Origin: Streptococcus sp.
Lineage (GTDB): Bacteria > Bacillota > Bacilli > Lactobacillales > Streptococcaceae
Direction of reading: 5' to 3'
NCBI GenBank assembly: GCA_030528055.1
Contig: JAUMZQ010000010.1
Location: forward strand, 33,442 to 97,441
Length of the DNA: 64,000 bases
In this document: one piece after another, positions 1 through 62,348 of the stretch
How positions within the stretch are numbered: position 1 is the stretch's first letter
Layout of the letters: the number at the start of each line of letters is the position of its first letter
Position numbers and translations under genes: made by a program
Notes under the pieces: generated by a model
Databases searched by the model: none
Told to the model about the DNA's origin: nothing
The model's input: the letters and a program-made list of their open reading frames with translations, nothing else

Positions 1-1709
1 CTATCTGGTTTTAAAGTATCTGCCACAGCAACCATTCCTGCTAGTTGCTGATTGAGAGCGATGAATACAACTGTTTTTCCCTCATTCATTAAGGAAAGTG
101 ATTGCATCTTAATCGAATCAATGGAAATGTGATTTTCACGCAGCAATGATTCATTTCCCACAAGGATCGTTGTCTCTTTATAACGACCTGACAAGCCTTT
201 TCCCACAATAACTTTAAAATCATCTATAGAATAAAAGGCACTCTTCTTTATCTGCACCGCCTCCATGATAGCTATTGCTAGAGGATGTTCTGAATACTGT
301 TCCATGCTAGCTAAAAAAACAAGAACTGCCTCCTTAGAAAACGAATCTAAAACTATCACATCCGTTAAACTAGGACGACCATTTGTAATTGTTCCGGTTT
401 TATCTAAAACCACCGTGTCTATCTTACGAAGTATTTCGAGTGCCTGACCTGATTTAATCAAGATTCCTTTTTCTGCAGCTTTACCAGTTCCTACCATGAT
501 GGCTGTTGGTGTTGCCAACCCAAGTGCACATGGACAAGCAATCACCAAGACCGAAATAAAGATTAAAAGAGAAAATTGAAAACTTTTTCCTGCTAAAAAA
601 TACCAAGACACACTGGACAAAATAGCTAGTAGCAAAACGAACGGCACAAAATAAAGGGAGATTCTATCAGCTAAGGTAGCAATAGGGACTTTTGTTCCTT
701 GAGCTTCTTCCACTAGATGAATAATTTGAGCAATTGTCGTATCTGCACCAATTTTAGTTACTTGATAATCAATTGTACCAGCTTGATTGACGGTTGCACT
801 GATTATCGGATCACCAATTGTTTTTTTAACTGGAAGATTTTCACCAGTCATCATTGACTCATCTATATAGCTTTCACCCTTAAGAACTACTCCATCAACT
901 GGAATAGACTCTCCCGGCTTGATGCGAACAATATCTCCTAATTGTATCTCTTTTGTCTTAACGAGAACAGCTTGCCCTTGTCGAATTACCGTTGCTTCGT
1001 CAGGCAATAACTGTAATAGTTTTTGAATAGCCTGTGACGTCCGTCTCTTTGCTGCATGTTCCAAGTATTTTCCCAATACAACCAAAGTAATAATGATTGC
1101 AACAGATTCAAAATAAAGTTGATGGATTGAGTGCCTTTCTCCACCAAAAACTTTGAACAGTGAATACATACTGTAAACAAAAGCCGCTCCACTTCCTAAA
1201 GTAATCAAGCTGTTCATATTTGGATGTTTGTTCCATAAATGTTGAAAACCAATCTTATAAAATTGCCAGTTTAAAATCATGACTGGCAATGTCAACAAGA
1301 GCTGAACAGTGGCAAATATAATCGGAAATTCTGTGGGTGTGAGAACAGTTGGTAGTGGAAAGCCAACCATACTTCCCATTGAAATATAAAGCAAAGGAAC
1401 AGTCAGCCAGATTAAAAACCATACTTTTCTTTTCTCTTTTGCTAACTCTTTCCCTTGTTCTTGACCATAACCTTCTCCAGACTCTTGAGTCTCTACCTTT
1501 TTTTCTTTGGCTTGATACCCTGCCTTAGCAACTGTATCAATCACTTGTTGGTTCTCAAAACCTTGTTTTGGAGTGAGCGTCAAGGTCTCTGTCACTAAAT
1601 TAACATGAACATCTTCGACAGTTCTTAGCTTACTTACAGCCAATTCTATCGTCTGAGCGCAAGAAGAACAACTCATTCCAGATAGTATAAATTCTTTGCT
1701 AGTTGCCAT
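1..1709 (-). CDS. copA: Copper-exporting P1B-type ATPase CopA (3' end cut off)
   Basis: Heavy-metal P-type ATPase that expels Cu(I) across the membrane using ATP. Translating the minus strand from the ATG at 1709 gives one open frame of about 569 codons that is still open at base 1. An N-terminal metal-binding domain carries GMSCSSCA near residue 11. Transmembrane segments follow, then the actuator motif MMTGEN, the membrane metal site CPC (VIACPCALGLATP), the phosphorylation motif DKTGT near residue 436 and the SEHP motif. The frame ends at DTLKPD, just before the expected GDG hinge. The start lies 3 bp after the copY stop, so the two form an operon under CopY. The small cupA gene found between copY and copA in pneumococcus is absent here. 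The missing part should hold the hinge and last two helices. Confidence 0.93.
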   Translation of the reverse strand, partial: MATSKEFILSGMSCSSCAQTIELAVSKLRTVEDVHVNLVTETLTLTPKQGFENQQVIDTVAKAGYQAKEKKVETQESGEGYGQEQGKELAKEKRKVWFLIWLTVPLLYISMGSMVGFPLPTVLTPTEFPIIFATVQLLLTLPVMILNWQFYKIGFQHLWNKHPNMNSLITLGSGAAFVYSMYSLFKVFGGERHSIHQLYFESVAIIITLVVLGKYLEHAAKRRTSQAIQKLLQLLPDEATVIRQGQAVLVKTKEIQLGDIVRIKPGESIPVDGVVLKGESYIDESMMTGENLPVKKTIGDPIISATVNQAGTIDYQVTKIGADTTIAQIIHLVEEAQGTKVPIATLADRISLYFVPFVLLLAILSSVSWYFLAGKSFQFSLLIFISVLVIACPCALGLATPTAIMVGTGKAAEKGILIKSGQALEILRKIDTVVLDKTGTITNGRPSLTDVIVLDSFSKEAVLVFLASMEQYSEHPLAIAIMEAVQIKKSAFYSIDDFKVIVGKGLSGRYKETTILVGNESLLRENHISIDSIKMQSLSLMNEGKTVVFIALNQQLAGMVAVADTLKPD

Positions 1710-8139: not shown

Positions 8140-8177
8140 GCACTTTTGTCCAGAAAATTGGCCTACAGTTTCAGACA

Positions 8178-8204
8178 TTGAGTTCTTTTTAAATATGCTA
8201 TAAT
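8178..8204 (+). promoter_or_regulatory. Promoter of the LXG toxin operon
   Basis: TTGAGT (8178-8183) and an extended -10, TGCTATAAT (8196-8204), with a short 15-bp spacer that the TGn extension would offset. It is the only good plus-strand promoter before the four-kind gene array at 8239-13799. Confidence 0.65.
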
Positions 8205-8238
8205 AGATATTATCAATATGAAAGGATTGTTTAAGTTT

Positions 8239-8517
8239 ATGGGAGAAATTCAAAGCAATAAAGAAACAGCACAATCTTATGCTAATCAGATAACCACTGC
8301 TTGCCAAACATTATCAAATAGTGGAGATGTGACCCTAGACACAACAACTGAACTTGAGGGAAACACGCGCAACCATTCAGCTATCAATCAGTCAGCAACC
8401 TTTTTAGAACAAATTACCTCATCCATTGAAACAGCTTCTTCGCATCTTCAAACAATTGCTAGCAACTTTGAAGCTGTTGATACAGCTGGTGCGAAAGGTT
8501 TTGGGAACCAACAATGA
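8239..8517 (+). CDS. Small helical T7SS partner protein (TIGR04197/DUF3130-like)
   Basis: About 92 residues beginning MGEIQSNKETAQSYANQI. All-helical and Ser/Thr/Gln-rich with no signal peptide, matching small WXG100-like proteins encoded just upstream of LXG toxins. In studied systems these Lap-type partners bind the LXG domain and help deliver the toxin to the type VII secretion machine. The frame opens earlier at 8218, but the only Shine-Dalgarno (AAAGGA) sits before the ATG at 8239. Its stop overlaps the next start (ATGA), so the two are co-translated. Family call is by pattern; partner role is inferred from position. Confidence 0.75.
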   Translation: MGEIQSNKETAQSYANQITTACQTLSNSGDVTLDTTTELEGNTRNHSAINQSATFLEQITSSIETASSHLQTIASNFEAVDTAGAKGFGNQQ

Positions 8518-8852
8518 CTAAAGATTGGGATGAATTGAATCAAAAAGAACGGAAACTATCAGAACAACTAGAGGAAATGAGCCACCGACGCTTTCGAGTT
8601 GAACAGATTCTTCGTGACTTTGAAGATTACGATCGGAGTCTGTATTTTTCTGAAAATAATTTATGGGAAGCTAGCCTTGGCAGTCGATACGCTTATCAGT
8701 TAGAAGAAAGAAACCAAGAGTTACAGTATCATCGGAGGCAGATGTTTAATGATTTCTGCGACTGTATTGATAGCCTAAAGAAAGAAGAACGACGAATTGA
8801 AGATGATATCGAAACTATTTATTACAAAAAGAGAAAAGAAAATCTAAAATAG
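8514..8852 (+). CDS. LXG-associated coiled-coil protein (DUF3958-like)
   Basis: 112 residues, almost wholly charged helix (QKERKLSEQLEEMSHRRFR, later SLKKEERRIEDDIE). It resembles the DUF3958 family found between the small partner and the LXG gene in streptococcal toxin operons. It has no membrane segment. It overlaps the upstream gene by 4 bp and lies 16 bp before the toxin gene. The likely role is a chaperone or targeting factor for the LXG domain, inferred from operon position and from known Lap proteins. Confidence 0.75.
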   Translation: MTKDWDELNQKERKLSEQLEEMSHRRFRVEQILRDFEDYDRSLYFSENNLWEASLGSRYAYQLEERNQELQYHRRQMFNDFCDCIDSLKKEERRIEDDIETIYYKKRKENLK

Positions 8853-8868
8853 AGGAGGGAGAAATAAA

Positions 8869-10692
8869 ATGGGACTGAATATGACTTTAGACCAATCAGA
8901 AGCTCAAGCAGAGAGCGTTAAAAGTGTCGTCAAAGTACAATCTGAGGGATACCAAGCTTTACAAGAAGCCATTCAAAATTTCACAAACGATACAGAGAGC
9001 TTAAAAGGAGAAGCTTACGATAATGCTAGATCTTATTACTTAGAAGTGCTATTGCCTCTTGCAAAAGGTGGGAAACTATATGCAGAAGCACTAGGCGAAG
9101 CCAGTGCAAAACTTCCTACAAATTATCAATCAGAAGTGGATACTAAAAGCTGGAGCGAAGAACAACTCCAACAATTGATCCAGCAAGAAGAAAATGCCAT
9201 CTCTCAATTAAATCCTATTAGACAATCTCTTAGCCTTTTAGATCGTGTCACTCAACCTAATTATGGCACTCAACAAAATACTATCCTACAGCAAAATAAC
9301 ATTTTACGACAAAACACTGACTCTCTCATCAGCACTCATACTGCAGCCAGAGATTTTTATGCAACTATTCTAACAAAGCTACAAACTTACAACACTAGCT
9401 CTAAAAGTTTGTTTGATGACTTGGAAAATATTGAACTTCAAATGTCTACCGGACTGACTCAAAGTCAAAATAGTTGGAATGCTGAGTCGGGAACCTTTAC
9501 TATCCCAGAAGATTTGAAGTGGGCAAGCTACCTATCTGCTTATGAAGCGACTAAAGACCTCAAGGCTAATAAAGAAGATAAGCAATTCATTAACAACATG
9601 ATGGCAGAGTATGGCTTTGATGTCACAACAGCTCAACAACTACTAACCATTAAAAAAGGAATTGATGCAAAATTTCCTAATTCCAGTCAAAAAGAAAAAG
9701 ACTATTTCTTTTTAAGAGTTATAGGTGCTGCAAGTTATGAAGACGACGACTTTGACAGAAACATGTGGAATCTAACAGCTGGTAACTTTAGACTGTTTTT
9801 TTCTTTAAAATTTCACGATATGAACTACCAATCAAAATCACTCTTAGATGTCTTTCAAGATCTTGGTTTGAGTAAACAAGAAGCCAAAGAACTCAACTAT
9901 AATCTTAGACTACAACATGAAATGGCGGGAGGAGAATATAAAACTACCAAGCAAATGTTAGAAGATAGAGTTGAGTTATACAACAATGCGAGAAGTACCT
10001 ACCAATCAGTCTACGGGACAACAAAAAGTTTTGATGATTTTTGGGATAGTAAATTAAAGGCTTACTCCAATCATGGTAAGGGAAATCCTGACTTCACCCA
10101 CCAGTCCATCACTATGGCAACTCATCTAAATCCATCTCCAGCTCAATTATCTGATGTTTATGGTGGAAGAGAGCATGTGAAAGACTTAGCTGGTTGGGAA
10201 GGGGACACTACTCGCAATGCCAATGATAGAGATCCTAGTATCGGTGAAGATGATTACAAGGCGGACTTGGATTCTGTCAACATTATTGGGCGAATGAAAA
10301 AAGGACAGTCTTACACAGAAGCTATGAATGCCTACTACCATGATGTAAACCAAGGAGAGTCTGTACGTGAGAAAGAATTTCTGAAAAATAAAGACTGGAA
10401 ACAGGTGAAAAGTACAATTTACGATAGCCTCGTTCCGAATGAAACCTACAGAGAAATTATGACCCCCTACTACAAAGATCTATTCCAAAAGAATTCTATT
10501 CAGGATAGAGATTTTATAAAAAATGAAGAGTGGAAGTATACGAAAAACGCTGTTTATGATGACATCCTTCCTGAAGATATAAAAAGAAAAAGAGCAAAAG
10601 CTGCCAAAAGCTATATTTTAGAGAAAATTCCAGTACAAGGAAAAAATATTGTACAATTTTTAGAACGCCTAGAAGCTGTGGCAGAGAAGTAG
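8869..10692 (+). CDS. LXG-domain type VII secreted toxin, TelC-like C-terminus
   Basis: 607-residue polymorphic toxin without signal peptide. Residues 1 to about 200 are a helical LXG domain (LKGEAYDNARSYY near residue 47 gives the LxG signature). A helical middle runs to about residue 400. From about residue 405 a separate toxin tip begins, with an aspartate-rich segment near residues 425-460 (DLAGWEGD, NDRDPSIGEDD, ADLDSV). That region and the adjacent TipC-like genes resemble TelC of S. intermedius, which attacks lipid II outside the membrane. The tip contains an internal duplication: residues about 484-527 and 531-572 share YYxD..Q..S, F.KN..W, K...YD and a final P. AGGAGG precedes the start. 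No secretion-machine genes are in the window, so export must rely on a distant T7SS locus. Confidence 0.88.
   Translation: MGLNMTLDQSEAQAESVKSVVKVQSEGYQALQEAIQNFTNDTESLKGEAYDNARSYYLEVLLPLAKGGKLYAEALGEASAKLPTNYQSEVDTKSWSEEQLQQLIQQEENAISQLNPIRQSLSLLDRVTQPNYGTQQNTILQQNNILRQNTDSLISTHTAARDFYATILTKLQTYNTSSKSLFDDLENIELQMSTGLTQSQNSWNAESGTFTIPEDLKWASYLSAYEATKDLKANKEDKQFINNMMAEYGFDVTTAQQLLTIKKGIDAKFPNSSQKEKDYFFLRVIGAASYEDDDFDRNMWNLTAGNFRLFFSLKFHDMNYQSKSLLDVFQDLGLSKQEAKELNYNLRLQHEMAGGEYKTTKQMLEDRVELYNNARSTYQSVYGTTKSFDDFWDSKLKAYSNHGKGNPDFTHQSITMATHLNPSPAQLSDVYGGREHVKDLAGWEGDTTRNANDRDPSIGEDDYKADLDSVNIIGRMKKGQSYTEAMNAYYHDVNQGESVREKEFLKNKDWKQVKSTIYDSLVPNETYREIMTPYYKDLFQKNSIQDRDFIKNEEWKYTKNAVYDDILPEDIKRKRAKAAKSYILEKIPVQGKNIVQFLERLEAVAEK
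10080..10411 (+). repeat. Toxin-tip repeat, copy 1 (inside the LXG gene)
   Basis: About 330 bp almost identical to 11353-11685, with only a few scattered substitutions near both ends. It encodes the start of the toxin tip from the QSITMATH region through the Asp-rich segment to KNKDWKQVK. The match drops sharply after 10411. Confidence 0.92.
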
Positions 10693-10702
10693 GAGGAAAC
10701 CC

Positions 10703-11344
10703 ATGAAAAAAAAGATGACAATCATGATACTCATTGCTAGTGGCCTCCTGATGCTTGCTTTTGCACTACCAATCAGTATCTATTACATCAACCTGCGACC
10801 CGAACCACGAAATATTTTCGATGAAATCTACTTAGAAACTGAAAAAACCTATCGAAGTAACAATATTCTGGGAAATATTGATGGGTTTGATATTAAAGGT
10901 TCTTGGTCAAATGATAATGAATATTCGAGATATAGTCCATTTGGAAACTACGTTAAAAAAAGTATACCTAACGACTATTCAGAAGTTGGAATGAGCTTCT
11001 ATTTTGAATCAAAAGACAAAAACTCATCAATATATTTTGATAAAAAAATTAATTCAAATACAACATTATCTATATGGAGTAAATATAATTTCAGAGATAA
11101 AACTTTATCTAAAACTATTTGGCTCTCACTTAAAGAGAATGGAACAGAAAAACACACTAATGATGAATCCCAAGTCAAAGCATACTTACAAAAGTACGGT
11201 ATCACGGCAGATGACCTAGACCGTTATTATGATGAGATTGTGAATAAAAAGGTACTACCAGACTGGTGTTCCATTTATGATAGTAAATTCTCTCCAAGCA
11301 ACTATGGAGACATCACCATTAAAACTCAATGGAAAGATTGGTAG
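10703..11344 (+). CDS. TipC-like immunity protein, copy 1
   Basis: 213 residues with one N-terminal hydrophobic anchor (about residues 5-29, IMILIASGLLMLAFALPISI), then a soluble domain facing outside. Such anchoring suits immunity to a toxin acting on the outer membrane face. It starts 10 bp after the toxin stop behind AGGAGGAAACCC, so it is the likely cognate antidote. The N-terminal block (NIFDEIYLETEKTY) and C-terminal block (about residues 155-213, ending KTQWKDW) are nearly the same in all four paralogues, while the core (about 60-150) differs strongly. The family call rests on resemblance to TipC and on context. Confidence 0.82.
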   Translation: MKKKMTIMILIASGLLMLAFALPISIYYINLRPEPRNIFDEIYLETEKTYRSNNILGNIDGFDIKGSWSNDNEYSRYSPFGNYVKKSIPNDYSEVGMSFYFESKDKNSSIYFDKKINSNTTLSIWSKYNFRDKTLSKTIWLSLKENGTEKHTNDESQVKAYLQKYGITADDLDRYYDEIVNKKVLPDWCSIYDSKFSPSNYGDITIKTQWKDW

Positions 11345-11352
11345 ACATTTGA

Positions 11353-11685
11353 GGAAATCCAGACTTCACCCATCAATCCATCACTATGGCAACCCATCTA
11401 AATCCATCTCCAGCTCAATTATCTGATGTTTATGGTGGAAGAGAGCATGTGAAAGACTTAGCTGGTTGGGAAGGGGACACTACTCGCAATGCCAATGATA
11501 GAGATCCTAGTATCGGTGAAGATGATTACAAGGCGGACTTGGATTCTGTCAACATTATTGGGCGAATGAAAAAAGGACAGTCTTACACAGAAGCTATGAA
11601 TGCCTACTACCATGATGTAAACCAAGGAGAGTCTGTACGTGAGAAAGAATTTCTGAAAAATAAAGATTGGAAACAGGTGAAAAAC
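11353..11685 (+). repeat. Toxin-tip repeat, copy 2 (orphan cassette)
   Basis: Direct repeat of 10080-10411 in the same orientation. The pair of direct repeats, with the first immunity gene between them, could recombine to delete that gene and swap the toxin end. Confidence 0.92.
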
Positions 11686-11832
11686 ACAATCTATGCCAGT
11701 CTCGCTCCTGATATGGAAACATTTTTACAGGGGGATAAGGCTATGAAAGCATATATCATTAAAAAATATAAAGAACAAGGCAAAAATATTGTACAATTTT
11801 TAGAACGTTTAGAAGCTGCGGCAGAGAAGTAG
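11353..11832 (+). pseudogene. Orphan toxin-tip cassette (no LXG domain)
   Basis: Copy of the toxin C-terminus lying after the first immunity gene. Homology to the full gene begins at 11353, in frame through a point with no start codon. The first ATG (11386) has no Shine-Dalgarno, so it is probably silent or poorly translated. The first 330 bp are nearly identical to the tip of the full toxin. It then lacks the second internal repeat and ends with its own variant (DMETFLQGDKAMKAY) before rejoining the shared NIVQFLERLEA end. Open length from 11386 is 148 residues. Without LXG it cannot be exported alone. It looks like a recombination donor or displaced tip, as known for orphan tips of Rhs, CDI and LXG systems. 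Confidence 0.85.
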
Positions 11833-11842
11833 GAGGAAGCCC

Positions 11843-12484
11843 ATGAAAAAAAAGAGGACAATCATAATACTCATTGCTAGTAGCCTCCTAATACTTGCTT
11901 TTACGTTACCAATCAGTATCTATTACATCAACCTGCGTCCCGATCCACGAAATATTTTTGATGAAATCTACTTAGAAACTGAAAAAACCTATCGGAATAA
12001 TAATATTTTAAAAAACATTAAAGGTCTTGATATTAAAGGATATTGGCCAGATGATAGCGAATATTTAAAAAATATACCACATGGAAGTTACAAAGAACAT
12101 TATTACTCAGATGGGTATAATAATATTGCACTAGGTTTCGATTTTACTAATTCTGAACAAACTAGTTATATACGTTTTGATAAACATATAGATACGCTTA
12201 TAAGAATTAGAATACGAGCAAAATATAATTATTTGGAAAAAAAATTACAAAAATCTATTAAAATTATTCTAGAAAAGGGTGGTTCTGACGACTATATTGA
12301 GGAGGAATCCCAAGTCAAAGCCTATTTACAAAAGTATGATATCACAACAGATGACCTAGACCACTACTATGATGAAATTGTGAATAAAAAGGTACTACCA
12401 GACTGGTGTTCCATTTATGACAGTAAATTCTCACCAAACAACTATGGAGATATTATCATTAAAACTCAATGGAAAGATTGGTAA
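11843..12484 (+). CDS. TipC-like immunity protein, copy 2
   Basis: 213 residues, same plan as copy 1: N-terminal anchor, NIFDEIYLETEKTY block, variable core, and conserved end SQVKAYLQKYDITTDDLD to KTQWKDW. It begins 10 bp after the orphan tip stop behind AGGAGGAAGCCC, mirroring the toxin/copy 1 junction. This pairing suggests orphan tip plus copy 2 moved as one cassette. The core differs from copy 1 (for example YWPDDSEYLKNIPHG), which fits specificity for a different tip variant. Confidence 0.8.
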   Translation: MKKKRTIIILIASSLLILAFTLPISIYYINLRPDPRNIFDEIYLETEKTYRNNNILKNIKGLDIKGYWPDDSEYLKNIPHGSYKEHYYSDGYNNIALGFDFTNSEQTSYIRFDKHIDTLIRIRIRAKYNYLEKKLQKSIKIILEKGGSDDYIEEESQVKAYLQKYDITTDDLDHYYDEIVNKKVLPDWCSIYDSKFSPNNYGDIIIKTQWKDW

Positions 12485-12506
12485 ATGTTTGAGGAAATCA
12501 AAATTT

Positions 12507-13135
12507 ATGAAAAAAAAGATGACAATCATGATACTCATTGCTAGTAGTCTTCTGATACTTGCTTTTGCACTACCAATCAGTATCTATTACATCAACCTGC
12601 GTCCCGATCCACGAAATATTTTTGATGAAATCTACTTAGAGACCGAAAAAACCTATCGAAGTAACAATATTCTGGGAAATATTGATGGGTTCGATATTGA
12701 AGGTTCTTGGCCAAATGATAAGCCCGATATTGCAAAACACCACATGGAATCTATAATACCAAAAATATCTCTGATAATTATTCCAAAGTAAGAATTGGAT
12801 TTAACTTTGAACAAAATAGACAAATCGCTTCAATATCATTAGAAAAAACTCTTGATTCAAATACTATTTTGTCGGTATGGAGTATGTATCACTTCAAAGA
12901 TAAAACTTTGGAGAAAACTGTAGGAATTGTGTTGGGATCAGATCTTATTGAAGATGAAACCAAAGTCAAAGCCTATTTACAAAAATATGGTATCACGGCA
13001 GATGATTTAGACCGCTACTATGATGAGATTGTGAATAAAAAGGTACTACCAGACTGGTGTTCCATTTATGATAGTAAATTCTCTCCAAGCAACTATGGAG
13101 ACATCACCATTAAAACTCAATGGAAAGATTGGTAG
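12507..13135 (+). pseudogene. TipC-like immunity gene, copy 3, frameshifted
   Basis: Starts like the other copies (ATG at 12507, GAGGAAATC upstream), but the frame ends at 12791 after 94 codons. Comparison with copy 4 shows one A missing from an A run at 12734-12737: the reading GATATTGCAAAA is followed by CACC where ACACC is expected. Adding one base restores TPHGIYN and an open frame through to KTQWKDW at 13135. The rest is intact, so the lesion is recent, an error, or a slippage switch. As read, only the anchor and a short piece would be made. No toxin tip precedes it. Confidence 0.85.
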
Positions 13136-13157
13136 ACATTTGAGGAAATCAAAATTT

Positions 13158-13799
13158 ATGAAAAAAAAGAAGACAATCATAATACTCATTGCCAGTGGCC
13201 TCGTGATGCTTGCTTTTGCACTACCAATCAGTATCTATTACATCAACCTACGTCCCGAACCACGAAATATTTTTGATGAAATCTACTTAGAGACCGAAAA
13301 AACTTATCGGAATGATAATATTTTAAAAAACATTAAAGATCTTGATATTAAAGGATATTGGCCAGATGATGATCCCAATATCGCACAAACACCATTTGGA
13401 GTCTATAATGATAAAAAAATTCCTAATGATTATAATAATGTTTCTATTGATTTCAATTTCAAAAAAAAATATAGTACAATGTTAATTTCTTTTGAGAAAG
13501 GAATAGATTTAAATACAAAAATTTGGATTTTAATTAAATATAATTTAAAAATTAAAACAATTACAAAGACTGCTCAAATTATTTTAAAGAAAGATGATTC
13601 TACAACTTATATTGACAAAGAATCCCAAGTCAAAGCATACTTACAAAAGTATGATATCACAACAGATGACCTAGACCACTACTACAATGAAATTGTGAAT
13701 AAAAAGGTACTACCAGACTGGTGTTCCATTTATGATAGTAAATTCTCTCCAAGCAACTATGGAGACATCACCATTAAAACTCAATGGAAAGATTGGTAA
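13158..13799 (+). CDS. TipC-like immunity protein, copy 4
   Basis: 213 residues with N-terminal anchor (IIILIASGLVMLAFALPI) and the shared first and last blocks. The core differs again and is notably AT- and Lys-rich. The true start is 13158, behind GAGGAAATC; the frame is open 30 codons further upstream inside copy 3. It follows a conserved junction sequence (ACATTTGAGGAAATCAA) also seen before copy 3 and, altered, before the orphan tip. It has no adjacent toxin, so it may protect against toxins of other strains. It is the last gene before a terminator. Confidence 0.8.
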   Translation: MKKKKTIIILIASGLVMLAFALPISIYYINLRPEPRNIFDEIYLETEKTYRNDNILKNIKDLDIKGYWPDDDPNIAQTPFGVYNDKKIPNDYNNVSIDFNFKKKYSTMLISFEKGIDLNTKIWILIKYNLKIKTITKTAQIILKKDDSTTYIDKESQVKAYLQKYDITTDDLDHYYNEIVNKKVLPDWCSIYDSKFSPSNYGDITIKTQWKDW

Positions 13800-13854
13800 G
13801 AGTTGCTACTATCAAAAGTGGATAAGATATAGCTATAATTGAATGTATTATAAA

Positions 13855-13911
13855 TAAAAAACGACCATCAAGGCTAGATGAATCGTCTAACTTTGAGGGT
13901 TCGTTTTTTAT
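13855..13911. terminator. Bidirectional terminator between immunity array and pbp2a
   Basis: Long hairpin with A run on the left (AAAAAACGA) and T run on the right (TCGTTTTTT). It has an inner stem TCAAGGCTAGA/TCTAACTTTGA with two mismatches. It serves the convergent immunity array (+) and pbp2a (-). Confidence 0.8.
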
Positions 13912-13969
13912 AATGTATAAAGACCAACTCTTTATCTTACAACAAAGCTGTGTCTGTATCATTCAAATT

Positions 13970-16195
13970 TTACTGGAACCAGCCTGTAACAGTGTCCCAT
14001 AAATTTTTGGCTTTTTCACCAATCTTCGCATCATCGATTGCTTTCTTGGCTTCATCTACTAGATTTTGTGCCTTATCTTGAACATCTTTCAAGAAATCAT
14101 TATTTTCTTCGGTATCTGTCGTTTCTTCAGTTCCATAGGTATCAACTGGCGAAATACCATTTTGAGCATAAGTGTTTTTCTCTCCAGAAAACTTGGTACC
14201 CTCCGTATAAGGCAATACACTATTGGCAACATTTCGAAATACTGCCGAAGCTTCATTCGCACTGGTACCCGTCAAGTAGTGAGTTTCATCCGTTTTTGGA
14301 AATCCTAACCATTGACTAATCACAACATCTGGTGTATAACCAATTACCCACTGATCCCCTGATAAATCTGGGTTAAAAGAAGTTTCTGTTGTTCCTGTTT
14401 TACCAGCCATAGTATACCCATACGGTGCGGCGTATATTCCTGTACCATTAGAAAATGTTCCTAGCATCATACTAGTCATTTTTTCTGTTGCGGAGTGACT
14501 AAGGACACGAGTTGATGTTTGACGATGTGTCTTAACAACCTGACCACTAGCATTTTCGATTTTCGTGATAAGGTGAGCATCATTCATAACACCGTCATTG
14601 GCAAAAGTTGAGTAAGCTTGAGCCATTTGAAGTGGATTTGTGGTAACACCACTTCCTAGAGCAACTCCCAATGTTTTATCCACTTTATCCATATTAAGCC
14701 CAAATTTTTTACCATATTCAAAAGACTTATTAATTCCCAGTTCATTTACCGTTGAAACCGCAGGAATATTGAGCGATTCTGCCAGTGCTTGATACATAGG
14801 AACTGTAGGACTTGATTGGATATTTCCATAGTTATTTACAGTGTAGTCTCCGTAGACTGTGGTACTATTGTCCAACTCTTTTTCTGTGGACCAACCTCCC
14901 ACGATTGCAGGACTATATACTACCAATGGTTTAATCGTTGACCCTGGACTACGAGAAGACTGAGTTGCATAGTTAAAACTTCTAAATGCTGATTCTTCAT
15001 CACTATTGATACGTCCAACTAGCGCTCTGACGCCACCTGTTTTTGGATCTAGAGCGACGCTCCCAGACTCCGCTCTTGTGCCATCTTCTGCTAGAGGAAA
15101 GAGCTCATCATTATCATAAATCACTTGCATGCTTGCTTGGTAATTTTGATCCAGTTCTGTATAGATGTGATAACCATTGTTCACAATCTCTTCCTCGGTC
15201 AATCCATAATCTTTGATAGCTTCATTGATGACCGCGTCAAAGTAGGATGGATAACGATAGTCTCCTGTTTTCCCTTCGTAAGCATCCACTAGTTGCCCAC
15301 CAATACCAACCGTAGCAGACTGATCTGCTGTTTCTTGACTGATGTAGCCTGCAGCAACCATGTTTTGTAAGACCGTGTCTCGTCTAGCAGTTGCATTTTC
15401 AATAGAGTAAAGTGGATTATAGATTTCTGGTCCTTTCAACATCCCAGCTAATACTGCTGATTGGTCTAGGCTCAACTGACTTGCTGAAACACCAAAATAT
15501 TTTTTAGATGCGTCCTCAACTCCCCAAACACCATTCCCAAAGTAGGAATTGTTCAGATACATTGTCAGGATCTCTTTTTTACTATATTTTTTGTTAATTT
15601 CAAGAGCTAAAAAGAATTCCTTGGCTTTTCTTTCAATCGTTTGATCTTGAGATAGATAAGAATTTTTTGCTAATTGCTGGGTAATGGTTGACCCACCGCC
15701 TGAACGACCGGCTGTTATAATCGCTAAAATAAAGCGACCGTAGTTAATTCCTCCGTTTTTATAAAAAGTTCGGTCCTCTGTCGCAATCACAGCATTTTGC
15801 AAATCTTGACTAATTTCAGACAGTTCTACATAGGTTCCCTTTTGTCCTGTCAGACTACCCGCTTCTTTATTGTCTTTATCATAAATCAAGGTAGTAGCTT
15901 TCAAGGCATTTTGTAAATCTTTAACATTAGTCGTTTTGGCAACATAAAAGAGATAACCACCCGTAAACAGTCCAAAAGCCAAACCCAAAATTAAGATAAT
16001 TTTAGTGAGATGGAACTTTCTCCAAAAACGACGAATGGGATGTTGAGAAAGTGGTTTTTTCCGCTTTTTTTCGGAACGGCTAAAACTAGGCTCCACTTCT
16101 TTATCCAATTCCACTTTTTCTGCAACACCCTTTTTTACATTGTCTGTTTTAAAATAATTAATCAAGGTTTCAAATAAATCATTTAATTTCTTCAT
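13970..16195 (-). CDS. pbp2a: Bifunctional class A penicillin-binding protein PBP2a
   Basis: 741-residue peptidoglycan synthase anchored by one helix (about residues 65-87). The N-terminal glycosyltransferase has motif ATEDRTFYKNGGINYGR, the GGSTITQQLAKN box and the RKAKEFFLALE motif. The transpeptidase has the serine motif STIK (in SPGSTIKPL), SLN (AESLNIPA) and KTGT (MAGKTGTTE). The sequence follows pneumococcal PBP2a closely along its length, including the LTKIILILGL anchor and the C-terminal AKNLWDTVTGWF helix. Monocistronic by position. Gene symbol by similarity recalled from pneumococcus. Confidence 0.95.
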   Translation of the reverse strand: MKKLNDLFETLINYFKTDNVKKGVAEKVELDKEVEPSFSRSEKKRKKPLSQHPIRRFWRKFHLTKIILILGLAFGLFTGGYLFYVAKTTNVKDLQNALKATTLIYDKDNKEAGSLTGQKGTYVELSEISQDLQNAVIATEDRTFYKNGGINYGRFILAIITAGRSGGGSTITQQLAKNSYLSQDQTIERKAKEFFLALEINKKYSKKEILTMYLNNSYFGNGVWGVEDASKKYFGVSASQLSLDQSAVLAGMLKGPEIYNPLYSIENATARRDTVLQNMVAAGYISQETADQSATVGIGGQLVDAYEGKTGDYRYPSYFDAVINEAIKDYGLTEEEIVNNGYHIYTELDQNYQASMQVIYDNDELFPLAEDGTRAESGSVALDPKTGGVRALVGRINSDEESAFRSFNYATQSSRSPGSTIKPLVVYSPAIVGGWSTEKELDNSTTVYGDYTVNNYGNIQSSPTVPMYQALAESLNIPAVSTVNELGINKSFEYGKKFGLNMDKVDKTLGVALGSGVTTNPLQMAQAYSTFANDGVMNDAHLITKIENASGQVVKTHRQTSTRVLSHSATEKMTSMMLGTFSNGTGIYAAPYGYTMAGKTGTTETSFNPDLSGDQWVIGYTPDVVISQWLGFPKTDETHYLTGTSANEASAVFRNVANSVLPYTEGTKFSGEKNTYAQNGISPVDTYGTEETTDTEENNDFLKDVQDKAQNLVDEAKKAIDDAKIGEKAKNLWDTVTGWFQ

Positions 16196-60188: not shown

Positions 60189-62348
60189 CTAACGATGACA
60201 TTCTATCATCTCATGATAGAAACTTCTATTATTCACTAAATCCTTATGAGTTCCTCTTTCTACAATTCTTCCTCTATCAAAAACTACTACTTGTTCAGAA
60301 CGCTCAGCTACCACCAGACGGTGCGTGATAAAAATAACTGTTTTATCCAAGGTTAATAAATTTTGGATAATCTTCTTCTCTGTTATACTATCTAAGCCAC
60401 TTGTCGTCTCATCTAAAATGAGTATCTTTGCATTGGTTAGTAAAGCACGCGCAATAGCTATTTTTTGTTTTTGTCCTCCAGAAAGATTTACACTATCTGT
60501 TGATAATTTTGTACGATATCCTTCAGGTAGGCGTTTAATATCATCTTCTAATTCTGCCATCTTGATAGCCCAGAAAATCTGCTCTTGCTGAATAGAACCA
60601 GAACTTCCTAAAAGTAAATTTTCTAAAATACTTCCTTCAAAAAAATAAGATTGTTGTGGTACATAGTGAATAGAAGACCGCAATAGTTGCTTATCAATCT
60701 GCTGTATATTTTTTTGACCTAATGAAATGTTCCCTTGATAATCTTGATAAAAACCAACTAATAGCTTGGCTAAAGTCGTTTTCCCTGACCCTGAACTTCC
60801 TACAAAACTAATCTTACTTTTGGCTTTTATATTTAAGTGAATATTTTCTAAAACAGGATACCCATAACCATATTGATAGGTTACATTTTGAATAGATAAA
60901 TCACCTGTCAATGATTCTGTATCTTGAGAAATTTGGCTTGTTTCAAACTCTGAGTTCACTAGATACACTTCACTCAAACGATTTGTAGCCACTTGAGCAG
61001 CCTGCAATTTTGTTTGAAGTTGAATGATATTCTCCAAAGGTTTTGTAAAATAAGATATCAAACTGGTATAAGTAATTAGTTCCCCTAAACTGAGTTCTTG
61101 CCGTATCACTAGATGTGCTCCAAACCAGAGGATAAGGACATTTAAAAGTAACTGACTCAGTTCCTTTAAACCTTTTTGTAAAATAGATAACTGTGAATAA
61201 CGGAAAAATTTCTGAAGATAAATAGTGAATTTTTTATGAATCTCTTGGTAATTTCTTTTTTCACTGGTTAAAGTTTTTAGAGTTTCTATTCCCTTAATGC
61301 TCTCAATAATAGAAGAAGTCACTAATCCACTTGTCTCCATCACTTCATTATTTACTTTATCAAAAGGTTTCAAAAAAAGAAAAGCGATTAACACATAGAT
61401 TGGAAACAACAAAAGAGTAAGCAAAAATAAAGAACCATTTTTAAAAAATAATATAAATGAAACTATCAGGCAAATAGAACAATCTAAGAAAAGAGAGACT
61501 GTACAACTTGTCAAGGCTTCAATAATGTGATTCGCATCTGTAAAGCGAGAAAGAATTTCACCTGTGCGCCTAGTCGCAAAAAAACGCAGAGGCAGTTTAA
61601 AAATATGACGAATATACGGTAGGACAATATCATAAGAAAGTTCACGATTTAAAATCAAAATAAGATAGTCTTGAACATAGGACAACATTTGCTGTATCCC
61701 ATAAGAAAAAATTAAACCAATGGAAAACAAGCTCAAAACAACCTGAGAACCCTGTGGTATATAAACATCAACCATTTTTTGTAAGTAATAAGCAGCTAAA
61801 ATATGAATAAAATCGACACAAAGACCTACAACAAAGATAGTCATTATCAGTCGTTTTTTCATTACTAACAAAGAAAAATAATCTAAAAGTCTATGTTGTT
61901 TCTCGTGCTTCTGTTTGTAGAAAATAGTCGGTTTTAAAAAGATGGTCACTCCCGTCCATTCTTCCTCAAACTCTTTTCGTTTCAATTTCGTTAATTGCAC
62001 CATTGGATCTGGATCAGCTATATGAACAAAATCATTATCCACACCTGTTACTAGATAATAGTGAGACAAGCCATCTTTTTTTAAAACATGTACAACAAAT
62101 GGATAAGCTAAGTCATTCATATCAAATAGAGACATATCTGCTTGAAGTGCCTGAGTTGCAAATCCCATTGTCTCAGCAAGACGAACCAAGCCCAAAGCGG
62201 TAGTTCCCTCTAATGTTGTACCTGCCTTCTCTCGCAAAGTAGCTAGAGATAAAAAAGAACCATAATAGTTAAAAATCATAGCAAAAACTGCGACTCCACA
62301 ATCACGCATATCTACTTGTGGTCGGTAATGTTTCCTACTAAATTTCAT
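60189..62348 (-). CDS. ComA/BlpA-type peptidase-containing ABC exporter
   Basis: 719 residues. The N-terminal C39 protease has Cys in RPQVDMRDCGVAVFAM, His in LSHYYLVTGV and Asp in HIADPDP. It cuts Gly-Gly leaders. A six-helix membrane domain follows, then the ATPase: Walker A GSSGSGKTT, signature LSGGQKQK, ILILDETTSGLD, FITHR. Close to ComA in layout but clearly divergent. No HlyD-type accessory (ComB/BlpB) and no Gly-Gly peptide gene was found on either side. AGGAG precedes the start. Confidence 0.9.
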   Translation of the reverse strand: MKFSRKHYRPQVDMRDCGVAVFAMIFNYYGSFLSLATLREKAGTTLEGTTALGLVRLAETMGFATQALQADMSLFDMNDLAYPFVVHVLKKDGLSHYYLVTGVDNDFVHIADPDPMVQLTKLKRKEFEEEWTGVTIFLKPTIFYKQKHEKQHRLLDYFSLLVMKKRLIMTIFVVGLCVDFIHILAAYYLQKMVDVYIPQGSQVVLSLFSIGLIFSYGIQQMLSYVQDYLILILNRELSYDIVLPYIRHIFKLPLRFFATRRTGEILSRFTDANHIIEALTSCTVSLFLDCSICLIVSFILFFKNGSLFLLTLLLFPIYVLIAFLFLKPFDKVNNEVMETSGLVTSSIIESIKGIETLKTLTSEKRNYQEIHKKFTIYLQKFFRYSQLSILQKGLKELSQLLLNVLILWFGAHLVIRQELSLGELITYTSLISYFTKPLENIIQLQTKLQAAQVATNRLSEVYLVNSEFETSQISQDTESLTGDLSIQNVTYQYGYGYPVLENIHLNIKAKSKISFVGSSGSGKTTLAKLLVGFYQDYQGNISLGQKNIQQIDKQLLRSSIHYVPQQSYFFEGSILENLLLGSSGSIQQEQIFWAIKMAELEDDIKRLPEGYRTKLSTDSVNLSGGQKQKIAIARALLTNAKILILDETTSGLDSITEKKIIQNLLTLDKTVIFITHRLVVAERSEQVVVFDRGRIVERGTHKDLVNNRSFYHEMIECHR

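What the first reader, a model, noticed from the sequence alone, without database searches (positions are those of the whole stretch)
8178..13799. LXG/TelC-TipC locus built as a toxin-immunity cassette array
Seen: one promoter, two small helical partner genes, one LXG toxin, then immunity / orphan tip / immunity / immunity (frameshifted) / immunity, all on one strand. Known: LXG proteins are type VII secreted antibacterial toxins; TelC attacks lipid II and TipC protects at the membrane. Inferred: the locus is a diversifying interbacterial weapon with stored tips and extra antidotes, inserted between rpsB and pbp2a. The Asp-rich tip and the anchored antidotes support TelC-like chemistry, but this is by eye.
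Basis: partly seen in the sequence, partly recalled or inferred. Interest (0 to 1): 0.78.

Follow-up and report, generated by a model that had tools for sequence, protein, structure and literature searches.

The report
Streptococcal TelC-TipC toxin and antidote array
This is a streptococcal weapon locus of a known kind, one secreted cell-wall-poisoning toxin followed by a row of antidote genes, and comparing it with relatives suggests which short piece of the toxin the antidote recognises and that the spare toxin fragment in the row lacks that piece.

Summary
Window 8218-13799 encodes a LapC1/LapC2-TelC-TipC locus: an LXG toxin matching TelC (PDB 5UKH, E 1.2e-122), three intact TipC genes (NF033863), one broken tipC, and a toxin fragment between tipC1 and tipC2. 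The genome has a T7SSb elsewhere. The layout is published: S. intermedius B196 has telC-tipC1-orphan-tipC2 (PMC9600955), and tipC arrays recombine (PMC9484751). It is a new member of a known kind.

Comparison adds something my literature searches did not show. Among S. oralis-type toxins (my label), similarity of the neighbouring TipC1 follows best one segment, window-TelC residues ~341-404 (peak r 0.86-0.91, familywise p 0.0003, the floor of 3000 shuffles). A second group peaks there too (n=7, p 0.03); the second TipC gives no peak. The TipC side peaks at residues 81-100, holding three of five published binding mutants. The segment ends just before the catalytic Asp. The 14 orphan fragments whose start I printed begin at that Asp, so they lack it; one LXG-less piece (L038) keeps part. 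"Extra antidotes" fits; "stored tips" is not supported. The tail shares part of the signal. This TelC also has an unusual 44-residue repeat.

The parts
8218..8517 (+). lapC1-like targeting factor (DUF3130/TIGR04197), 99 aa as listed (start may be 8239); carries FEAVD (FxxxD) and DTTTELEGN (DxxTxxxGN)
   Evidence: TIGR04197 2.2e-21; motifs read by eye in the translation against those given in PMC9600955
8514..8852 (+). lapC2-like targeting factor (DUF3958), 112 aa
   Evidence: DUF3958 2.8e-5, 24.8 bits, cut-off 26.3; 7.8e-31 to its counterpart in the S. intermedius locus L013
8869..10692 (+). telC: LXG toxin, 607 aa
9889..10080 (+). putative TipC-specificity segment, TelC residues 341-404; hypervariable part about 353-392
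   Evidence: covariation with TipC1 in relatives
10090..10092 (+). codon of D408, equivalent of S. intermedius D401 (D401A is the inactive control of PMC6193138)
   Evidence: alignment A2; invariant in 8 of 8 aligned toxins
10306..10437 (+). first copy of a 44-residue internal tandem repeat (residues 480-523)
   Evidence: local score 120 against best of 1000 shuffles 45
10441..10572 (+). second, diverged copy of that repeat (residues 525-568)
   Evidence: of 52 tip sequences scanned only this toxin has a second copy
10703..11344 (+). tipC1, 213 aa, N-terminal hydrophobic segment by eye
   Evidence: NF033863 7.1e-61; 6DHX 5.6e-51
11353..11832 (+). orphan C-lobe fragment of telC; homology starts at 11353; first ATG 11386 lies after the D408-equivalent codon, and no Shine-Dalgarno-like site precedes it by eye
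11843..12484 (+). tipC2, 213 aa
   Evidence: NF033863 2.4e-55
12510..13135 (+). tipC3, broken: the open frame ends at 12791 and the 3' part lies in another frame
13158..13799 (+). tipC4, 213 aa
   Evidence: NF033863 1.5e-60

Best explanation
A TelC-type lipid II phosphatase toxin (catalysis inferred by homology) is handed to the T7SSb by LapC1/LapC2-like partners and delivered to neighbouring cells; TipC1 on the outer membrane face protects kin. TipC recognises its toxin mainly through a ~60-residue, partly hypervariable segment of the toxin's N-lobe just before the catalytic Asp, with a possible contribution of the C-terminal tail (inferred from natural covariation). New toxin types arise when that segment and its tipC change together. 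Older tipC genes stay downstream as extra antidotes. The orphan fragment is the conserved C-lobe left over from, or serving as a homology arm in, these exchanges; it is not a stored warhead. Shown here: gene content, conservation, covariation, fragment boundaries. Inferred: specificity role, displacement history, toxicity.
For: Family and structure matches. T7SSb EsxA-EsaA-EssB-EssC in the own genome. Sliding windows over 14 S. oralis-type toxins: peak at 333-372, r 0.87, familywise p 0.0003; 11 after removing near-duplicates: 345-384, r 0.86; 12 and 9 after dropping two loci with unread bases: r 0.91 and 0.905, same p. Second group, n=7 including the window: peak 345-384, r 0.70, p 0.032; second TipC of the same loci (n=8): no peak, p 0.27. 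LXG domain r 0.07 (n=11). Grouping by the segment equals grouping by TipC1 in 14 of 14 toxins (ARI 1.0; tail 0.755; C-lobe 0.37; upstream N-lobe 0.09; cut-offs tuned for best agreement, shuffles treated alike). TipC side (n=14) peaks at S. intermedius residues 81-100, r 0.97; the five residues whose mutants bound TelC less (56, 71, 87, 93, 96; PMC6193138) lie in windows 51-110, r 0.75-0.97, three of them in the peak. The 14 orphan fragments whose start is printed start at the D401 codon, after the segment. 23 of 40 non-first TipCs are at least 80% identical to a first TipC at another locus.
Against: Covariation is not binding. The toxin tail also follows TipC1: r up to 0.51 (n=14), but 0.92 against 0.93 for the segment in the 8 loci that have a second TipC, and up to 0.77 after the two gapped loci were dropped (n=12); its ARI of 0.755 is also significant. 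Samples are small and related. In the distant group (n=9) all windows correlate, 0.53-0.95. A direct test of displacement was not significant: 3 of 10 orphan-TipC pairs match a main pair elsewhere, 1.36 expected, p 0.12. One LXG-less telC piece (L038) starts at about residue 373 and so keeps part of the segment. In the window, fragment and main C-lobe are 96% identical over 356 nt, which fits recent duplication or conversion as well as displacement.
Confidence: 0.63

Rival explanations
1. Classic cassette array: the orphan tip plus the following tipC is a matched spare warhead that recombines into the main toxin and switches its immunity type, through the C-terminal tail.
For: Fragment and main toxin share 300 nt at 99%; fragments alternate with tipC in several genomes, five of them in one S. 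oralis locus (L017); orphan modules are described so for E. faecalis LXG loci (PMC7790226 passages). The tail, which the fragment does carry, follows TipC1 too, in one subset of 8 as well as the segment does.
Against: The fragment lacks the segment that follows TipC1 best in the larger sets. Orphan fragments do not follow their neighbouring TipC (n=10, r -0.01; 15 mixed pairs, tail r 0.09).
Confidence: 0.22
2. The covariation is linkage or strain relatedness only: neighbouring DNA travels together and the segment has no special role.
For: Samples are small; several loci are near-identical; the far group correlates in every window.
Against: The tail lies nearer to tipC1 and is also variable, yet correlates less in the full and de-duplicated sets; LXG does not correlate; the second TipC does not; removing near-duplicates keeps the peak within 333-384; the TipC-side peak falls on published binding mutants.
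Confidence: 0.15
3. The locus is decaying and inactive in this strain: broken tipC3, altered toxin C-terminus.
For: tipC3 is broken; the toxin has a 44-residue repeat in its C-lobe not found in 51 other tip sequences.
Against: The toxin and both partner genes are open; the Asp motif is intact; tipC1 is intact; a T7SSb is present.
Confidence: 0.12

Closest known systems
TelC-TipC locus of Streptococcus intermedius B196 (SIR_1491-1486)
   Same: Same gene order lapC1-lapC2-telC-tipC1-orphan toxin domain-tipC2 (PMC9600955 Fig. 1 legend, passage); toxin 57% identical to that of S. intermedius SK54 (L053); Asp motif conserved.
   Different: Two more tipC copies, one broken; a 44-residue repeat in the toxin; lies between rpsB and pbp2a, whereas the S. 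intermedius SK54 locus has neither gene in the stretch fetched (L013).
tipC arrays of S. mitis BCC08 (15 copies) and S. gallolyticus ATCC 43143 (4 copies)
   Same: Tandem tipC paralogues with conserved ends and variable middle; recombination between paralogues (PMC9484751 section 18 and passages; PMC6193138 passages).
   Different: PMC9484751 notes that TipC diverges most on its TelC-binding face; the passages I read treat the immunity side and do not discuss the toxin-side segment or where orphan fragments start.
Orphan toxin/immunity modules of LXG loci (E. faecalis OG1RF) and CDI/Rhs systems
   Same: Truncated toxin copy plus immunity gene downstream of a full-length toxin (PMC7790226 passages).
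   Different: In two of the three OG1RF orphans a shared 5' part is joined to an unrelated 3' end; here the orphan repeats the conserved 3' part of the toxin and lacks the segment that varies with immunity.

Membership tests
TelC (LXG lipid II phosphatase) | N-terminal LXG domain | tested here: met
TelC (LXG lipid II phosphatase) | TelC toxin domain | tested here: met
TelC (LXG lipid II phosphatase) | Catalytic/calcium Asp motif, D401 included | tested here: met
   D408, D461, D462, D466, D468 invariant in 8 of 8
TelC (LXG lipid II phosphatase) | Hydrolysis of lipid II outside the membrane | not testable with these tools
   needs an assay
TelC (LXG lipid II phosphatase) | Lap1 and Lap2 partners and a T7SSb in the genome | tested here: met
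   TIGR04197; second partner below the DUF3958 cut-off but 7.8e-31 to the S. intermedius counterpart; EssC 1748 bits, EssB, EsaA, EsxA on contig C8
TipC immunity family (NF033863) | Profile match over the full length | tested here: met
   three intact copies at 188-206 bits, cut-off 30
TipC immunity family (NF033863) | N-terminal membrane anchor, outward domain | tested here: inconclusive
   hydrophobic N-terminus by eye; topology not tested
TipC immunity family (NF033863) | Neutralises the cognate TelC | not testable with these tools
   needs binding or protection assay; in two species only TipC1 bound (PMC6193138 passages)
Orphan toxin/immunity module (CDI/LXG sense) | Toxin fragment without secretion domain, homologous to the full-length toxin | tested here: met
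Orphan toxin/immunity module (CDI/LXG sense) | Fragment carries a whole toxin domain | tested here: not met
   homology begins a few codons before the D408 codon; the rest of residues 213-407 is absent
Orphan toxin/immunity module (CDI/LXG sense) | Fragment and neighbouring immunity gene form a matched pair | tested here: inconclusive
   n=10, r -0.01, p 0.50

The most novel reading that the evidence does not exclude
Polymorphic TelC toxins diversify mainly through one exchangeable ~40-60-residue immunity-recognition segment inside the enzyme domain, just upstream of the catalytic Asp. The 'orphan tips' of streptococcal telC arrays are C-lobe remnants or homology arms that mostly begin where that segment ends, so the arrays store antidotes, not warheads.
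Probability: 0.55. Interest if true: 0.62.

Novelty: new member of a known kind. Interest (0 to 1): 0.5.

Why it matters
The locus is of a known kind. The comparison names a toxin segment that can be tested directly as the TipC recognition site; in the passages I read, PMC6193138 mapped only the TipC side. It also gives a different answer to what the orphan fragments in T7SS toxin arrays are. If true, immunity types of TelC could be predicted from a short stretch of sequence.

Tried and rejected
Tail as sole specificity determinant: first tested on 35 tip-TipC pairs. In the 23 S. oralis-type pairs it looked positive (r 0.43), but that vanished after removing near-duplicates (15 pairs, r 0.09, p 0.17), and tail classes did not predict TipC type. 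In the whole de-duplicated set (27 pairs) tail and core both correlate (r 0.61, 0.71), which relatedness can explain. Those sets mixed main toxins and orphans. With main toxins alone the tail keeps a secondary signal.

Direct displacement test: 3 of 10 matched pairs, p 0.12, not significant.

Mobile origin: no TelC match in plasmids or phages; in viral contigs 67 pattern stretches, none a relative.

Source of the second repeat copy: no other TelC sequence scores higher than the toxin's own first copy; one S. intermedius fragment ties (score 120), at most 17 of 44 residues identical.

Rows dropped: 22 tip-like ORFs without the core motif or with unread bases, among them four orphan fragments or pieces (one in L020, two in L023, one in L026) that start further downstream than the Asp. 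From 52 tips to 35 pairs, 17 were dropped for tail length or lack of an adjacent full-length TipC, the window's main toxin among them. L028's main toxin (unread bases) and toxins without an adjacent TipC were left out. L012 and L014 have unread bases near or in their TipC; they were kept (L014 also) and removed. L038 was counted as a main toxin in the far group.

Structure: one prediction of the toxin, mean pLDDT 67, N-lobe good, C-lobe poor. No coordinates were available to place the segment relative to the active site. Foldseek 'pdb' was not run.

Full report
What is there. On the plus strand, 8218-13799 holds eight units: two small helical partner genes, an LXG toxin, tipC1, a toxin fragment, tipC2, a broken tipC3 and tipC4. 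Profiles and structures name them: TIGR04197 (LapC1-like), DUF3958 just under cut-off (LapC2-like; 7.8e-31 to the S. intermedius counterpart), LXG, TelC 5UKH, and TipC family NF033863 for three intact copies and both pieces of the broken one. At E 0.001 the own genome holds no other LXG match and no other TipC match. A T7SSb (EsxA, EsaA, EssB, EssC) lies on another contig. The toxin's Asp motif is intact, D408 being the equivalent of S. intermedius D401.

Known context. [quoted passage not shown] TipC2 of S. intermedius and TipC2-4 of S. gallolyticus did not bind the local TelC. A term search of PMC6193138 for active site, coevolution and TelC surface found nothing. The mBio 2022 paper (PMC9600955, passages) labels SIR_1487, between tipC1 and tipC2, an orphan toxin domain. 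Garrett et al. 2022 (PMC9484751: abstract, section 18 and passages) describe 15 tipC copies in S. mitis BCC08, recombination among them, and greatest divergence on the TelC-binding face of TipC. The layout here is therefore published in kind.

Relatives. 46 of 284 genomes of the genus have a TelC-like match at E 1e-5. I fetched 40 stretches chosen from that list, and a named scan gave 15 loci, among them S. intermedius, S. oralis, S. infantis, S. equinus, S. orisratti, S. caballi and S. ferus. Orphan fragments and tipC copies alternate in several; the S. oralis DD15 locus (L017) has five fragments. The layout varies.

Place in the genome. Of 15 relatives looked at (with rpsB places), 10 have rpsB and pbp2a within 5 kb on one contig. 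In 10 of these 10 the interval is 1.8-4.8 kb, holds a nusG frame, and shows no TelC among the frames listed. In the TelC stretches fetched from other genomes rpsB was not found, and the one pbp2a match (L047) is distant. In this genome nusG lies on contig C7. The array sits at a break in gene order; whether it caused the break cannot be said.

Where TipC specificity may lie. I compared, across main toxins, the pairwise identity of 40-residue toxin windows with the pairwise identity of the adjacent TipC1. In 14 S. oralis-type loci r is at most 0.20 up to window 309-348, 0.85-0.87 for windows starting at 333-369, about zero over the catalytic core (429-492), and 0.37-0.51 in the tail. The familywise p of the peak is 0.0003, the floor of 3000 shuffles. 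The peak survives removal of near-duplicates (n=11), removal of two loci with unread bases (n=12 and 9), and leaving out any one locus (it stays within 333-408). A second group of seven toxins, with the window and S. intermedius, peaks at 345-384 (r 0.70, p 0.032). In the eight loci that have a second TipC, that TipC gives no peak (p 0.27), while TipC1 does (r 0.93); but in this subset the tail is nearly as high (0.92). A distant group (n=9) correlates in every window, highest at 369-408. LXG domains do not follow TipC1 (n=11, r 0.07). On the TipC side the best window is S. intermedius residues 81-100 (r 0.97); of the five residues whose mutants bound TelC less (56, 71, 87, 93, 96), three lie in it. 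The alignment shows the pattern by eye: conserved LRLQHE, a hypervariable stretch of about 35 residues, FWDxKLKAYSN, then the catalytic DFTHQSITM. L029 and L031 share the upstream type but differ in the segment and in TipC1; L015 and L031 share a tail class but differ in the segment and in TipC1.

What the orphan fragments are. The 14 orphan fragments whose start is printed begin within a few codons of the catalytic Asp. Four more fragments or pieces (one in L020, two in L023, one in L026) begin further downstream. Thus 18 of the 18 I counted carry C-lobe and tail sequence, or pieces of it, but not the segment above. An exception of another kind is L038, a 236-residue frame without an LXG part, which starts at about residue 373. 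Twelve S. oralis-type fragments follow a tipC stop codon directly; the window and S. intermedius have other junctions. In the window the junction lies in GGAAATC, shared by the tipC spacer and telC, which suggests separate origins at the same place. The first ATG of the window's fragment lies after the Asp codon, and no ribosome-binding site is seen before it. Fragments do not follow their neighbouring TipC (n=10, r -0.01). I conclude that they are unlikely to be stored warheads. A remnant of displaced toxins, or a homology arm of array expansion, fits better, but the direct displacement test was not significant (3 of 10, p 0.12). Extra tipC genes do fit an antidote store: 23 of 40 non-first TipCs are at least 80% identical to a first TipC at another locus.

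A local oddity. The window's toxin carries a 44-residue tandem repeat in its C-lobe (residues 480-523 and 525-568, score 120 against at most 45 in 1000 shuffles). Of 52 tip sequences scanned it alone has two copies. Its effect is unknown.

Limits. Covariation is indirect, samples are small and related, and the tail shares part of the signal. No activity was tested. Absence from print rests on searches in one open-access library.

Noticed in passing
window 10306-10572: A 44-residue tandem repeat in the toxin's C-lobe; no other TelC sequence scores higher against the second copy than the first copy does (one ties).
   Followed up: partly
window 8143-13970 and G000 contig C7:12759-13289: nusG, which lies between rpsB and pbp2a in 10 of 10 relatives with the two genes within 5 kb, is elsewhere in this genome, so the array marks a break in gene order.
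   Followed up: partly
L124:5821-8034 (minus strand), G000 contig C8: A 738-aa protein next to essC, with a small partner weakly like YwqH, matches no Pfam or NCBIfam family at E 0.01; a possible further T7SS substrate.
   Followed up: partly
L016, L017, L018, L028, L032 orphan fragments: In S. oralis-type arrays the fragment's frame holds a GTG that overlaps the preceding tipC stop (GTGA), which could allow coupled translation.
   Followed up: no
L017 and L029: The main telC lies in two open frames in these S. oralis loci although their tipC arrays are long.
   Followed up: no
L038:8899-9606 (minus strand): A telC piece without LXG part that starts at about residue 373, followed by three tipC genes.
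   Followed up: no
window 60189-62348: ABC transporter with a C39 peptidase domain (bacteriocin/pheromone exporter type) near the end of the contig.
   Followed up: no
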